Shown in pieces: positions 2,777-13,896 of a stretch of DNA of 64,000 bases (positions are counted from its first letter, which is position 1; each line of letters begins with the position of its first letter). Both the position numbers and the translations under genes were made by a program. Below the pieces are notes generated by a model. That model had not been told where the DNA came from, made no database searches, and saw nothing but the letters and a program-made list of their open reading frames with translations. This DNA is from Candidatus Pelagibacter sp. IMCC9063 (GTDB taxonomy: Bacteria; Pseudomonadota; Alphaproteobacteria; Pelagibacterales; Pelagibacteraceae): NCBI RefSeq assembly GCF_000195085.1, contig NC_015380.1:854001-918000 (forward strand), given 5' to 3'.

Positions 2777-3088
2777 ATGGTTTTACTTTGGTCCATTTCA
2801 TTTTTAGTAGTCTTAATTTTTTTAAGTAATTTTTTAACAAATTATTTAAAAAGTCTTGACATAGAAAATGATCACAACAGCCCAGATGCTTTTTGGAAAT
2901 TTACCTATGATCATTATGATAAAAATGAATTTAATAAATCTATTACAAAAGTAAAAGATTCTGATTCAGTAGAAAAGCAAAAAATATTTAAAGACAGATT
3001 GATTATATTATATTGGCTGCTTACAATTTCGATTTTTGTAACTGTTATTTATATTTTAACTTTAGTTTTAAAAATGATATTATTATAA
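2777..3088 (+). CDS. small two-helix membrane protein, unknown
   Basis: This 103-aa protein has one hydrophobic segment at each end (about 3-22 and 78-102) and a charged central domain with many Asp and Lys. The N-terminal helix probably acts as an uncleaved signal anchor. The ATG follows directly on the TAA of a truncated leader mini-ORF and has no Shine-Dalgarno of its own, so translation is likely coupled. No family is recognised. Confidence 0.5.
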   Translation: MVLLWSISFLVVLIFLSNFLTNYLKSLDIENDHNSPDAFWKFTYDHYDKNEFNKSITKVKDSDSVEKQKIFKDRLIILYWLLTISIFVTVIYILTLVLKMILL

Positions 3089-9217: not shown

Positions 9218-12200
9218 GTGAGAAAGATATCAGAATCAAAAAGTTGGAAAGAATTAAACAATCATTTAGCTTCTCTAACTACCTCGCAAAAATCTAAAGC
9301 AGGTGGAGATATATTTGAACACGTTTGTAAGTATTATTTACAAACAGCACCTCACTACCAGTCCAAGCTAAAAAAGGTTTGGCTCTTAAAAGAAATTAAA
9401 GAAGATTTAAAAAGAAAACTTAATCTCCCCGATACCGATGAAGGTATCGATTTAATTGCAGAGACTTATGATAAAAAATATTGGGCGATCCAATCTAAAT
9501 ACAGATCCAATCCTAAAGACACCCTTACGATTAAAGGGGATCTAGCAACCTTTGCTAATTTAGCTTTTAACAACTGTAAACACATAAGTCATGGTTTAGT
9601 TCTAACGACTTCTGATAAACCACCACTTAAAACCAAACTATTAAGGGGAGTTGGTTTTGAAACGTTAGAAAGCTTTGTTGGTTTAGATGATAATGATGGT
9701 GAAGGTTGGAAAGCTATTACTGCTAAAGCCAAAGGTAAAACCATTAAACCAAAAGCCCTAACTCCAAGACCCCATCAAGCAGAAGCTATTAAAAAGAGTT
9801 TCGAACACTTTAAAAACAATGAACGTGGCAAAATGATTATGCCCTGTGGTACGGGTAAAAGTTTAGCTGCATTTTGGATTGCAAGAAAAGTAAATGCTAA
9901 ATCTATTTTAATTGCTGTTCCTTCATTAGCGCTTCTTCAACAAACGTTAAAAGTATGGACTAGAGAATATTTAATAGCAGGTGTTAGACCTGATTGGTTA
10001 TGCGTTTGTAGTGATCAAACGGTAAGTGATGATCAAGATGATTTTGTCAGCAACATTTATGATTTAGGAATCGATGTCACTACGGACAAGAATGATATTA
10101 AAAAGTTTCTTCAAAAAAAGAACAGTAACTTAAAGATAGTATTTACCACCTATCAATCAGGAAAAGTCACCGCTCAAGGAGCTAAAGGATTTAAGTTTGA
10201 TCTTGGAATTATGGATGAGGCTCATAAAACAGTAGGGCATGGTGAAAAAGCAATGGCTCATTTAATTCATCAAAAGAACATCAAGATTAAGAACCGTTTG
10301 TTTATGACGGCAACCGAGAGATTATTTAGAGGCGATAAAGATGAATACTTATCCATGGATGATCCAAGAGATTATGGAGAGATCATCTATCAATTAAGCT
10401 TTAAAGCTGCGATCGAAATGAAGCCACCTATCATTTCAGATTATAAGATTATTACTTTCGGGATCACGGCTCCTGAAATTGAAGCGGTTTATAGTAGTAA
10501 TAAATTCATCCAAGTTAAAAAAGAAATCGATAATATTACTGCCAGAGAATTTGCAATAGCCATAGCTCTTCGAAAGGCAATAAAGAAACTTAAAATAAGT
10601 AATGCTATTTCTTTTCACAGCTCCATCAAAAGAGCCAATAACTTTAAAAAACAACAAGAGCTTATCTCTAAAGTTTATAAACAATACGGAAAAATCAAAA
10701 CATTCCACGTAAGTGGTGCAATGGCAACCAGCCAACGTACATCACAAATGAGAGAGTTTGCGGAAGGCAAAGGTTTAATGACCAATGCTAGATGTTTAAC
10801 GGAAGGGGTGGATTTACCAGCGATCGATTGTGTTGTGTTCACGGATCCCAAAAGATCCAAAGTAGATATAGTGCAAGCGGCAGGAAGAGCTTTGCGATTA
10901 TCTAAAAGTAAAAAGTTTGGTTATATTCTTATACCCATTCTTATTTCAGAAGATGAAAATGCCACTGAAGCTGCAAAGGACACAGCCTTTGAAGATATCG
11001 TAGCAACGATTAGAGCATTAGCTACACAAGATACCAGGATCACTGATTATTTAAGAGCGGTCAGCAGTGGAACTATTCCAAGAGGCAAAGGAAGTCCAGT
11101 TGATGGCTTGACAAAACTTAATGTCCTAACAAAAGTTAATGAAGAAGAGTTTAATAAATCCATCCAACTAAAGGTCTGGGACCGTGTAGCTTTTGGTAAT
11201 TGGAGACCTTATGAAGAAGCTAAAAAATATGTTCAATCTTTAAAGTTAAAAAATTCCACACAATGGAGAGCCCATATTAAACTAAAAAATTTTCCAAAGG
11301 ACATTCCACAAAGCCCAAATGAAGTCATTGTATACAAAAAAGAATGGGAAAGCTGGGGTGTATTTTTAGGAACAGGAAATGTTGCTTCACAACTAATACA
11401 ATATAGAGATTACAAAGAAGCAAAAAAATACGCTCAATCTTTAAATCTTAAGAGCGGAAGAGAATGGGTAGCCCATACTAAATCTAAAAATTTTCCTAAA
11501 GATATCAAGGTTGCCCCTCATTCATATGAAGAATTTGAAAGTATGGGTATATTTTTAGGAACAGGAATTGTTGCTAACAGGTTAAGAAAATACAAAAAAT
11601 ACAAAGAAGTTAAAAAATATGCTCAATCTTTAAAATTAAAAAGTGCTAAACAATGGACTGATCATTGTAAATCAAAAAATTTCCCAGAAGATATTCCAGT
11701 AAAAGTTTGGGATATTTACAAAAATGAATACCAAGGTATGGGAGATTTTCTAGGTACAGAAAATACTTCTTGGAGATATAAAAATTACAAATCGTACAAA
11801 GAAGTTAAAAAATACGCTCAATCTTTAAATCTTAAGAGCAGAAGAGAATGGAAAGCCCATATTAAATCTAAAAATTTTCCTAAAGATATCCCTTTATACC
11901 CAGATAATCTCAAAACGTATAAAAAAAAATGGGAAAACTGGGGTGTATTTTTAGGCACAGGAAATACTTCTTTGAAACATAAAAAGTACAAATCGTACAA
12001 AGAAGCTAAAAAATATGCTCAATCTTTAAATCTTAAGAACAGAAATGAATGGATAGCCCATGCTAAATCTAAAAATTTTCCTAAAGATATCAAGCGTGCC
12101 ATTTGGCTTGATGAAGAGTTTGAAAGTATGGGTGTATTTTTGGGAACAGGAACTGTTGCTAACCATTTAAAAGAATTTAGAAGTTTCAAGAAAGTTAAAA

Positions 12201-12358
12201 AATATGCTCAATCTTTAAAATTAAAAAGTGCTAAACAATGGACTGATCATTGTAAATCAAAAAATTTTCCAGAAGATATTCCGAGAAATCCAGACGCTTC
12301 TTACAAATATAAAAAAGAATGGAAAGGCTGGGACGATTTTCTGGGTAAGAAGAAATGA
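9218..12358 (+). CDS. Mrr-like nuclease/SF2 helicase fusion with six C-terminal repeats
   Basis: This 1046-aa protein has three parts. Residues 25-150 look like a PD-(D/E)xK (Mrr-type) nuclease: FEHVCK (Glu34), GIDLIA (Asp78), AIQSK (Gln92, Lys94). Residues 180-640 form an SF2 helicase with Walker A PCGTGKS (209-215), DEAH (333-336), TATE (364-367) and QAAGRALR (553-560). Residues 665-1046 are six repeats of 63-67 aa (YKEAKKYAQSLNLKS..EW, KSKNFPKDI, WGVFLGTG). The nuclease-helicase half resembles the N-terminus of type ISP restriction enzymes, but no methyltransferase is present. The repeat resembles the W-GW-FLGTG integrase-type repeats of algae and giant viruses. A role in anti-phage defence or mobile-element biology is inference. 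GTG 9218 is the start. Confidence 0.8.
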   Translation: MRKISESKSWKELNNHLASLTTSQKSKAGGDIFEHVCKYYLQTAPHYQSKLKKVWLLKEIKEDLKRKLNLPDTDEGIDLIAETYDKKYWAIQSKYRSNPKDTLTIKGDLATFANLAFNNCKHISHGLVLTTSDKPPLKTKLLRGVGFETLESFVGLDDNDGEGWKAITAKAKGKTIKPKALTPRPHQAEAIKKSFEHFKNNERGKMIMPCGTGKSLAAFWIARKVNAKSILIAVPSLALLQQTLKVWTREYLIAGVRPDWLCVCSDQTVSDDQDDFVSNIYDLGIDVTTDKNDIKKFLQKKNSNLKIVFTTYQSGKVTAQGAKGFKFDLGIMDEAHKTVGHGEKAMAHLIHQKNIKIKNRLFMTATERLFRGDKDEYLSMDDPRDYGEIIYQLSFKAAIEMKPPIISDYKIITFGITAPEIEAVYSSNKFIQVKKEIDNITAREFAIAIALRKAIKKLKISNAISFHSSIKRANNFKKQQELISKVYKQYGKIKTFHVSGAMATSQRTSQMREFAEGKGLMTNARCLTEGVDLPAIDCVVFTDPKRSKVDIVQAAGRALRLSKSKKFGYILIPILISEDENATEAAKDTAFEDIVATIRALATQDTRITDYLRAVSSGTIPRGKGSPVDGLTKLNVLTKVNEEEFNKSIQLKVWDRVAFGNWRPYEEAKKYVQSLKLKNSTQWRAHIKLKNFPKDIPQSPNEVIVYKKEWESWGVFLGTGNVASQLIQYRDYKEAKKYAQSLNLKSGREWVAHTKSKNFPKDIKVAPHSYEEFESMGIFLGTGIVANRLRKYKKYKEVKKYAQSLKLKSAKQWTDHCKSKNFPEDIPVKVWDIYKNEYQGMGDFLGTENTSWRYKNYKSYKEVKKYAQSLNLKSRREWKAHIKSKNFPKDIPLYPDNLKTYKKKWENWGVFLGTGNTSLKHKKYKSYKEAKKYAQSLNLKNRNEWIAHAKSKNFPKDIKRAIWLDEEFESMGVFLGTGTVANHLKEFRSFKKVKKYAQSLKLKSAKQWTDHCKSKNFPEDIPRNPDASYKYKKEWKGWDDFLGKKK
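11210..12340 (+). repeat. six in-frame coding repeats, a duplicated three-unit block
   Basis: Units begin at about 11210, 11411, 11600, 11795, 11996 and 12185. The spacings are 201, 189, 195, 201 and 189 bp, so units 1-3 and 4-6 are offset by exactly 585 bp. Units 3 and 6 are almost identical over 90 bases. Units 2 and 5 share EEFESMG in place of the Lys-Trp-Trp-Gly segment of units 1 and 4. This shows a recent block duplication without frameshift. Confidence 0.9.
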
Positions 12359-12744
12359 CGAAAAAAGAAGATGAAATTATTGAGGTAGGGTTAGATTTGT
12401 ATGAATTAGCTATGGCGGGTAAGCTAAAATACAAGGCTCCGCGTAGGAAATCACAACAAAACTTAGAGCATAAAGTACTCTTTGGTATGATGAAATTAGT
12501 TCGAGAAAAACTACACACTCCTCACAAAGCTCAATTGCAGTTTAGCAAAACCGAAGAATTATTGGAGCTATATAGAAAAGATAAGAAGATACCTGCCACG
12601 GACAATCCTAAGCATTGGGCTTCAGAAAAGCTATTTAAATACTGCAAGAATATGTGGGATAAATATATGCGAAAAGGCGGTATTTATTCATCTTTAAAGA
12701 GGAATAAAAAAGGTAGACCCAAAGATAAAAAAAAGAATAGCTAA
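12355..12744 (+). CDS. unknown protein coupled to the helicase
   Basis: This 129-aa protein starts within the last four bases of the helicase gene (ATGA), so the two are almost certainly co-translated. It is mostly alpha-helical, with acidic N-terminal residues, a basic middle (KYKAPRRKSQQ) and a strongly basic tail (RNKKGRPKDKKKNS) that could bind nucleic acid. Trp-containing segments (HWASEKLF, NMWDKYMRK) lie in the second half. I recognise no family. Its position makes it the first candidate partner of the helicase. Confidence 0.6.
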   Translation: MTKKEDEIIEVGLDLYELAMAGKLKYKAPRRKSQQNLEHKVLFGMMKLVREKLHTPHKAQLQFSKTEELLELYRKDKKIPATDNPKHWASEKLFKYCKNMWDKYMRKGGIYSSLKRNKKGRPKDKKKNS

Positions 12745-12795: not shown

Positions 12796-13176
12796 ATGAA
12801 ACATTTAAATAAATACGACCGCAAACTAGAGCTACTAGCTTTAGAATGCATTGAGTTGTTAAAGAAACAACTTCATTTACCAAACAAAGAAAAACCAAGA
12901 GAACAATTTGCCAAAGGTGGCAGTGTTGGCTCCTTGATGGATAATGGAAGAATTGACCAGCCGATGAAGCGCTTGTCTATGAAGCCAGTGGAACAAATGC
13001 ATAAGATGCAGCAACTGCGTATATTGCTTTCTGAAGGAGGAATGGTTGATGATGAATCACAAACCAGATATCTCATATCCATTTTAGAATCAGCACATGA
13101 ACTATCACCCATTGAGCAAAAACTATTAGAGGATCTGTATCAAGATCTTAATAAATTTAAAGGAGGAAAAAAATAA
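12796..13176 (+). CDS. unknown helical protein
   Basis: This 126-aa protein has two helical regions (about 5-35 and 60-120) joined by a Gly-rich linker (KGGSVGSLMDNG, near 41-52); SEGGMVDDES lies near 79-88. Short Gly-Gly-Met/Val segments of this type occur in phage-related proteins, but that is weak evidence. The stop shares one base with the next start (TAATG), so it is coupled to the 13176 gene. The spacing of 51 bases from the previous gene suggests one operon from the helicase onward. Confidence 0.55.
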   Translation: MKHLNKYDRKLELLALECIELLKKQLHLPNKEKPREQFAKGGSVGSLMDNGRIDQPMKRLSMKPVEQMHKMQQLRILLSEGGMVDDESQTRYLISILESAHELSPIEQKLLEDLYQDLNKFKGGKK

Positions 13177-13739
13177 TGAGCAGTGAAGCAAAGGTAACTT
13201 CTATCAAACAAGTAGAGGCTAATAAGAAAAATGCACAAAAAAGTACAGGGCCCAAATCTATGTGGGGAAAACATAATGCAAGCGGTAATGCAGTTTCCCA
13301 TGGTTTGCATGCCAATAAACATTTGGTGATAGGAGAACAGCTAGAAGAGTTTGAAGAATACCGATCTGCTTATTTAGATATGTTAGCACCTATTAATCCC
13401 GTTCAGGAGGAAACTGCTTTGCAGATTATTTCTGCAGGATGGAGACTCAGACGTTATGCCAATGTAGAGGCTGGCTTGTTTGATAACGAACAGTTGGATG
13501 GAAAACAATTTTTAAAAGAATCTTATGCCAGTAAAATTAGTTCGAAAGAGTATGAGGATTTGGTTAATAAAAGTTATAGGCCTAATGAGCTCCAAGGTCT
13601 GGCTTTTACTAGAAACTGCAATAGTCAAAATGGATTTTTAAAACTAAGTACGATCGAGCAACGATTGTTGACTAGGTACTATAAGCTTTTAGATATTTAT
13701 GCTTCGATGCAAGAGAAGAGTAGCAATGAAGAAACGTAA
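13176..13739 (+). CDS. uncharacterised STGP-GK-HGL motif protein
   Basis: This 187-aa protein carries the N-terminal signature EANKKNAQKSTGPKSMWGK, then NAVSHGLHAN at about 47-56, a VIGEQLEEFEEYR segment and a helical WRLRRYANVEAG segment near 91-102. I recognise this as a widespread bacterial family of unknown function, often seen in variable DNA. There are no catalytic residues I can name. It is coupled to its upstream neighbour by TAATG and overlaps the next ORF by 14 bases. Confidence 0.6.
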   Translation: MSSEAKVTSIKQVEANKKNAQKSTGPKSMWGKHNASGNAVSHGLHANKHLVIGEQLEEFEEYRSAYLDMLAPINPVQEETALQIISAGWRLRRYANVEAGLFDNEQLDGKQFLKESYASKISSKEYEDLVNKSYRPNELQGLAFTRNCNSQNGFLKLSTIEQRLLTRYYKLLDIYASMQEKSSNEET

Positions 13740-13896
13740 GAAAAAGCCTTCGTGCGAAACGAACCCATTTAAGGAAACTCGCCCATTTTATAATGAGCGA
13801 AAGTACATTAGATGGGTTGATCCCTTTGAGTCGATTAATCAAACCAGTCTAGGTCATTCTCAGAGCTGGAGGGACAATAAGTCCAAAAAAGAGTAA
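13726..13896 (+). CDS. small basic protein (56 aa), unknown
   Basis: The ATG at 13726 lies inside the end of the preceding gene and gives MKKRKKKPSCETNPFKETRP and a Tyr/Trp-containing remainder ending in DNKSKKE. The N-terminus is extremely basic. A longer frame opens at 13699 but would overlap the neighbour by 41 bases, so the internal start is preferred. It is the last gene before the glycine riboswitch. The function is unknown. Confidence 0.4.
   Translation: MKKRKKKPSCETNPFKETRPFYNERKYIRWVDPFESINQTSLGHSQSWRDNKSKKE

What the first reader, a model, noticed from the sequence alone, without database searches (positions are those of the whole stretch)
9218..12358. Nuclease-helicase fused to duplicated integrase-type repeats
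The N-terminal half resembles the restriction and translocase part of type ISP enzymes, but the methyltransferase half is replaced by six W/FLGTG repeats known to me mainly from algal, protist and giant-virus proteins. With no modification enzyme nearby, self-protection would need another basis. Repeats could set DNA target choice or host-factor binding.
Basis: partly seen in the sequence, partly recalled or inferred. Interest (0 to 1): 0.7.

Follow-up and report, generated by a model that had tools for sequence, protein, structure and literature searches.

The report
Nuclease-helicase with swappable repeat array
A SAR11-type bacterium carries a one-piece DNA-cutting motor, probably used against phages, whose usual methylation and target-reading half is missing and whose tail is a row of small repeats; close relatives keep nearly the same motor but exchange the whole row, which suggests that the row chooses what gets attacked.

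Summary
The 1046-aa protein at 9218-12358 is an Mrr-type nuclease plus SF2 motor, closest among solved structures to the first 650 residues of type ISP enzyme LlaBIII, followed by six ~65-aa repeats (a duplicated triplet). Coupler, methyltransferase and target-recognition domains are absent. D74, D78, Q92 and K94 are invariant in all seven relatives that retain the nuclease. The repeats belong to Pfam INT_rpt, shown through relatives; elsewhere this repeat is attached to GIY-YIG nucleases, helicases and a probable recombinase, so it is probably a DNA-targeting module. The same architecture (3-7 repeats) occurs in a few alphaproteobacterial genomes and six distinct IMG/VR sequences; the two longest are integrative elements. 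New result: among close relatives the helicase is 91-96% identical but the array only 37-43%, with a sharp DNA breakpoint at repeat 1, as in a specificity-domain swap; a control pair with near-identical motors keeps its array (93%). No methyltransferase was seen beside close homologues; the genome shows only a CcrM-like one. Most likely this is a modification-independent, array-targeted anti-invader nuclease-translocase carried by mobile elements. DNA targeting and defence are inferred, not shown.

The parts
9218..12358 (+). nuclease-helicase with INT_rpt array, 1046 aa, GTG start
9341..9619 (+). Mrr-type (PD-(D/E)XK) nuclease domain, residues 42-134
   Evidence: Pfam Mrr_cat_2 8.1e-14; D74, G76, D78, Q92, K94 identical in the window protein and all seven relatives that retain the nuclease, and nearly invariant across 14 wider homologues
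9449..9451 (+). codon of putative catalytic Asp78
9491..9499 (+). codons of Gln92-Ser93-Lys94 (QxK motif)
9758..10315 (+). SF2 helicase domain 1 (Walker A at 210-214, DEAH at 333-336)
   Evidence: ResIII 2e-18; motifs nearly invariant
10568..10900 (+). SF2 helicase domain 2 (motif VI residues Q553, R557, R560)
   Evidence: Helicase_C 2.8e-13; invariant
11048..11209 (+). linker between motor and repeat array
   Evidence: 94% identical to L003 whereas R1 is 52%
11210..11410 (+). INT_rpt repeat R1
11411..11599 (+). INT_rpt repeat R2
11600..11794 (+). INT_rpt repeat R3
   Evidence: R1-R3 modelled at pLDDT 94.2
11795..11995 (+). INT_rpt repeat R4 (partner of R1 in the duplicated triplet)
11996..12184 (+). 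INT_rpt repeat R5 (partner of R2)
12185..12355 (+). INT_rpt repeat R6 (partner of R3)
12355..12744 (+). 129-aa ORF overlapping the stop codon by 4 bp; not a conserved partner
   Evidence: no other match in 247 genomes of the family; no Pfam hit
13176..13739 (+). accessory 187-aa gene ('STGPK' protein) that recurs downstream of this nuclease-helicase
   Evidence: homologue downstream of the L003 copy at an unrelated locus; also beside a relic in G064; present without the helicase elsewhere
13699..13896 (+). 65-aa gene, similar to the C-terminal end of the next gene in L003
   Evidence: 52% identity over 29 aa, E 2e-6

Best explanation
It is a single-chain DNA-attacking enzyme of a kind carried by mobile elements. 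The C-terminal INT_rpt array binds particular DNA (a sequence or a structure) on incoming phage or rival-element DNA and loads the SF2 motor. The motor moves along or unwinds that DNA and the N-terminal Mrr-type nuclease cuts it. No methylation is used: the host is spared because the array's target is absent or hidden in host DNA. New targets are acquired by exchanging or duplicating the array while the motor stays the same. Shown here: the domain anatomy, intact nuclease and motor motifs, absence of a partner methyltransferase for the families tested, carriage on integrative elements, and array exchange. Inferred: DNA binding by the repeats, cleavage activity, the basis of self/non-self choice, and the anti-phage role.
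For: Nuclease and motor motifs are invariant. The architecture recurs in L003/L004, L006 (fragment), L107, L108 (cut at its nuclease end) and six distinct IMG/VR sequences with up to 7 repeats. Array exchange: L020/L036 nuclease 98%, helicase 93%, repeats 43%; L031/L036 helicase 96%, repeats 38%; nucleotide identity falls from about 76-99% to 52-54% at R1; dN rises from 0.05-0.08 in the motor to 0.61-0.71 in the array; control pair L027/L035 stays at 97% (helicase) and 93% (repeats). The nearest published pattern is type ISP, where the first half is highly conserved and the target-recognition half varies (PMC4872093). INT_rpt arrays are attached to GIY-YIG nucleases, SNF2-type and other helicases and a probable recombinase; an HNH-like case and a possible further nuclease case in jumbo phages rest on reading the sequence only. 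The array is strongly basic, +11.5 net charges per 100 aa, above every other ORF of 250 aa or more in the window (highest +9.7). Carriers have an integrase and a primase-helicase, and phages and their satellites are known to carry hotspots of anti-phage systems (PMC9122126). Patchy presence with decayed copies in the family.
Against: No assay. The confident repeat model has no relative in the PDB, so DNA binding is not supported by fold. Defence is guilt by association: in the window itself the neighbours are metabolic and small accessory genes, and PADLOC has no model of this protein, only a partial type IIG match. The carrier contigs are metagenomic assemblies, where repeats can cause misassembly, although L031 and L032 agree and L020 and L031 have complete ORFs. 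The IMG/VR label 'viral' is not proof that the carriers are phage-related.
Confidence: 0.5

Rival explanations
1. Sensor version: the array does not read DNA but binds a phage or host protein on DNA (such as a single-strand binding protein), and the nuclease-helicase then degrades DNA non-specifically. It would work like Nhi or Hachiman.
For: Single-gene and two-gene nuclease-helicases of this working type exist and need no methylation (PMC12904381; PMC12278908). A protein-binding array would also be exchanged quickly in an arms race.
Against: INT_rpt partners are mostly enzymes that act on DNA, and the array is strongly basic.
Confidence: 0.22
2. Mobile-element maintenance or transfer factor: the enzyme helps the element replicate, excise or move (as the helicase TtrA is needed for transfer of a Streptomyces linear plasmid), and the array recognises the element's own DNA.
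For: It lies beside integrases in L020 and L031, about 1.9 kb from one in L003, and on contigs with primase-helicases. TtrA is a putative helicase required for conjugation of SLP2 (PMC8743542). Distant helicase homologues are common on Streptomyces plasmids, often annotated as HA-domain proteins.
Against: Array exchange between near-identical motors is not expected of a factor that recognises one conserved element sequence. Chromosomal copies in the window and L107 show no integrase in the stretches read. An intact Mrr-type nuclease is a poor fit to element maintenance.
Confidence: 0.2
3. Host DNA repair helicase-nuclease (RadD- or XPB-like) with a general DNA-binding tail.
For: Weak matches to RadD and XPB models.
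Against: Scores lie far below the family cut-offs. A match in only 8 of 247 genomes of the family, with relics, is unlike a housekeeping repair gene.
Confidence: 0.06

Closest known systems
Type ISP restriction-modification enzymes (LlaGI, LlaBIII)
   Same: Single chain starting with an Mrr-type nuclease and an SF2 motor (LlaBIII E 1.5e-54 over residues 11-610); same D...QxK motif; conserved front half and variable target-recognition half (PMC4872093).
   Different: No coupler (PF22240), no N6 methyltransferase, no Type_ISP_C target domain (PF18135); a repeat array instead, and no modification partner found.
HA-repeat nuclease-helicases (for example Rhodococcus WP_064689746, Mrr_cat_2 + ResIII + Helicase_C + 8 HA)
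   Same: Same layout: nuclease, SF2 motor, then a tandem array of small domains with no methyltransferase.
   Different: The repeats are unrelated in sequence profile (hhalign probability 0.2%).
Integrase repeat unit family (Pfam PF14882, INT_rpt)
   Same: Relatives found with a profile of these repeats pass the Pfam cut-off (L037 9.9e-24, L034 5.3e-18, L066 1e-7).
   Different: The window's own repeats do not match the Pfam model; the partner domains are a restriction-type nuclease and motor, not a recombinase.
Nhi and Hachiman
   Same: DNA-degrading nuclease-helicase defence that needs no methylation (PMC12904381, PMC12278908).
   Different: Hachiman is a two-protein complex; no repeat array is described for either in the passages read; sequence relationship to Nhi was not tested.

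Membership tests
Type ISP restriction-modification enzyme | N-terminal Mrr-type nuclease and SF2 motor in one chain | tested here: met
Type ISP restriction-modification enzyme | coupler domain (PF22240) | tested here: not met
   no hit; the same search finds it in L015-L018
Type ISP restriction-modification enzyme | N6-adenine methyltransferase domain | tested here: not met
   no hit; genome-wide searches find only a CcrM-like gene (PF01555) and a PrmC-like gene (PF02384)
Type ISP restriction-modification enzyme | Type_ISP_C target-recognition domain (PF18135) | tested here: not met
HA-repeat helicase | tandem HA domains (PF03457) after the motor | tested here: not met
   profile comparison probability 0.2%
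INT_rpt repeat family (PF14882) | direct match to the Pfam model | tested here: not met
   (no match at E 10 in the own genome)
INT_rpt repeat family (PF14882) | homology through intermediate sequences | tested here: met
   a profile of the SAR11-type repeats finds L037 at 2e-147 and L034 at 1e-116, which Pfam calls INT_rpt at 9.9e-24 and 5.3e-18
Anti-phage defence system | protection in a phage challenge | not testable with these tools
Anti-phage defence system | cargo of mobile elements, patchy distribution | tested here: met
Nhi (single-gene nuclease-helicase immunity) | sequence relationship to Nhi | not tested
   analogy from a review only

The most novel reading that the evidence does not exclude
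The INT_rpt array is a modular DNA-reading code, each repeat contacting a short stretch of DNA through variable positions of its second helix (columns 16, 17, 20, 21 and 23 are among the most variable, while W19 and the FLG motif are conserved). Nature would then retarget one nuclease-motor simply by exchanging, adding or duplicating repeats: a protein-coded, reprogrammable restriction system without methylation.
Probability: 0.18. Interest if true: 0.9.

Novelty: new variant of a known kind. Interest (0 to 1): 0.62.

Why it matters
If right, this is a restriction-like enzyme that tells self from non-self with an exchangeable repeat array in place of DNA methylation, in a SAR11-type bacterium whose genome showed no restriction methylase for the three methylase families searched. 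It also gives the uncharacterised INT_rpt repeat, found in jumbo phages and giant-virus helicases as well, a first testable function: DNA targeting. Annotation pipelines may file such proteins as type IIG or ISP restriction-modification enzymes although they have no methyltransferase domain.

Tried and rejected
Conserved operon partner: the 129-aa gene overlapping the stop codon is found in no other of 247 genomes, rejected. Pfam and PDB matches to enolase around 542-643 are weak and were ignored. No structure-library match for the repeat model in the PDB; in BFVD the matches include SF2 helicases of Bodo saltans virus, Klosneuvirus and a marseillevirus at E 0.01-0.04, meaning that the repeat also rides on viral helicases, not a function. 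The full-length model has mean pLDDT 68 and was used only for secondary structure. The first viral scan with the single protein found nothing; repeat and motor alignments worked. No paper on the function of INT_rpt was found: one computational structure table lists PHINT_rpt PF14882 (PMC8078820) and a phrase search found none. Homology of INT_rpt and HA repeats: not supported. Fast point mutation in place of array exchange: rejected by the breakpoint and by the control pair. Extra phylum-level spread was sought with the repeat profile and gave only one more genome, a probable recombinase fusion.

Full report
What is there. The ORF at 9218-12358 (+) is intact, 1046 codons with a GTG start. Pfam finds an Mrr_cat_2 nuclease at 42-134 and the two SF2 helicase halves, ResIII at 181-366 and Helicase_C at 451-561. 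Among solved structures the best match is the type ISP enzyme LlaBIII, residues 11-610 against 16-650, E 1.5e-54, with D78 and Q92-S-K94 placed on the GVDL and QAK motif. PADLOC's type IIG enzyme model is matched only over positions 16-645 of 1646. The coupler, methyltransferase and Type_ISP_C domains, which the same library finds in plasmid type ISP enzymes, are absent. The genome is a single 1.28-Mb contig; that it is SAR11-type is my inference from its kinship with G089, whose copy is identical to that of the single cell SCGC AAA280-B11, which I know from memory as a freshwater SAR11.

The repeats. Six units of 57-67 aa fill residues 665-1046. They are DNA direct repeats 189-201 nt apart, and 11198-11497 repeats at 11783-12082, so R1-R3 and R4-R6 form a duplicated triplet (partner units 58-78% identical in protein). 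A profile built from the SAR11-type repeats finds INT_rpt arrays in IMG/VR contigs with E down to 2e-147, and Pfam calls those arrays PF14882, Integrase repeat unit. The window's own copies do not match the Pfam model, so membership rests on intermediates. Three repeats were modelled with AlphaFold at mean pLDDT 94.2 as an all-helical array with no relative in the PDB. Related viral models include giant-virus SF2 helicases.

What else the repeat is attached to. GIY-YIG nucleases (L030, L039, L042, L044, L046), SNF2-type helicases with a Methyltransf_8 domain (L022, L033, L038), other helicases (L028, L066) and, at the N-terminus, a protein in G752 that reads by eye as a tyrosine recombinase. 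Two jumbo-phage proteins look like an HNH nuclease fusion (L013) and a possible further nuclease fusion (P0002) by eye, without a Pfam hit. Most partners therefore act on DNA, and the window's array is more basic than any other ORF of 250 aa or more in the window. This is the main argument that the array is a DNA-targeting module; it is inference.

Relatives with the same architecture. Same family of bacteria: L003/L004 (857 aa, 3 repeats, helicase 82% identical) and the fragment L006. Other Alphaproteobacteria: L107 (976 aa, 5 repeats, full nuclease motif) and L108 (7 repeats, contig cut at the nuclease end). IMG/VR: L020, L027, L031 (identical to L032), L035, L036 and L115, with up to 7 repeats. 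In cellular genomes the repeat is rare: 3 of 385 genomes drawn from the class and 3 of 398 drawn from the phylum, own genome counted in both. Within the family, 8 of 247 genomes match the protein at all, own genome included, and several of these matches are other helicases or relics.

Array exchange. L020, L036 and L031 share 82-98% of the nuclease and 91-96% of the helicase but 37-43% of the repeats. At DNA level identity is about 76-99% up to the linker and falls to 52-54% where repeat 1 begins. dN is 0.046-0.078 in the motor and 0.61-0.71 in the array; in the control pair L027/L035 it is 0.018 and 0.038, so the array does not simply mutate fast. The window against L003 shows a similar step, linker 94% and R1 52%. 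For L020, L031 and L036, the best match of each repeat in another protein is seldom the same-numbered repeat of its close relative, as expected if whole arrays are replaced. This parallels type ISP enzymes, whose first half is conserved and whose target-recognition part varies between enzymes with different targets (PMC4872093).

Self-protection. No methyltransferase is visible among the ORFs read around the close homologues. In the own genome PF01555 finds one gene next to an rnhB-like gene (CcrM-like), PF02384 one over cut-off that reads as PrmC, PF00145 none over cut-off; other methylase families were not searched. One distant member of the wider family, L007 (33%, no repeats), has an N6_N4 methylase as its convergent neighbour, so partnership with methylation cannot be ruled out for that wider family.

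Mobility. The IMG/VR carriers L083 (13.8 kb) and L084 (20 kb of 21.8 kb) have an integrase-like gene beside the nuclease-helicase and DUF5906-type primase-helicases; in L084 the integrase is judged by eye from its likeness to that of L083, without a Pfam hit. L003 has a Phage_integrase gene over cut-off about 1.9 kb downstream. In G006 a decayed N-terminal piece lies beside a tRNA-Leu gene; in G064 and in the own genome (C1:174620-174724) decayed repeats remain. In G012, of the same genus, the homologue of window 2777-3085 lies about 1 kb upstream of gcvT compared with 11 kb in the window, so the stretch holding the gene is a variable region; its exact ends were not mapped. The 187-aa gene at 13176-13739 recurs downstream in L003 at an unrelated locus and beside the G064 relic, but also occurs alone elsewhere.

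How it probably works, and standing. The array loads the enzyme on invader DNA, the SF2 motor moves, the Mrr-type nuclease cuts, and targets are changed by exchanging arrays. Anatomy, motif integrity, absence of a partner methylase for the families tested, carriage and array exchange are shown; DNA binding, cleavage and defence are inferred. It works like a type ISP or HA-type nuclease-translocase but is not a member of either, since defining domains were tested and not met. Novelty is therefore a new variant of a known kind.

Noticed in passing
own genome G000:C1:174620-174724 (L002, minus strand, about 690 kb from the gene): Fossil of a single INT_rpt repeat with stop codons around it, pointing to an earlier, lost copy.
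   Followed up: partly
L009 (G006:C2), about 1500-1828: Decayed N-terminal piece of the nuclease-helicase lies directly before a tRNA-Leu gene, an insertion place typical of integrative elements.
   Followed up: partly
L080 1198-2256 (minus strand): The CcrM-like gene of this genome appears frameshifted near its 3' end: the expected C-terminal motif continues in another frame. Real or a sequencing error.
   Followed up: partly
window 13176-13739: An unnamed 'STGPK' protein family found in 16 of 247 genomes of the family, up to three copies per genome, no Pfam or PHROG hit; seems to be a travelling accessory gene.
   Followed up: partly
L054-L059 (1018 aa): A protein of virus-like contigs with an INT_rpt array but no Pfam match to its first 660 residues, though motifs there look helicase-like; six contigs carry it.
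   Followed up: no
L022, L033, L038: INT_rpt arrays in front of an SNF2-type helicase and a Methyltransf_8 domain: an odd fusion for a DNA enzyme.
   Followed up: no
L027 and L035: In these two contigs the nuclease-helicase is preceded by other PD-(D/E)XK nucleases (Pfam PDDEXK_1, and NucS_C in L035), an unusual nuclease-rich neighbourhood.
   Followed up: partly
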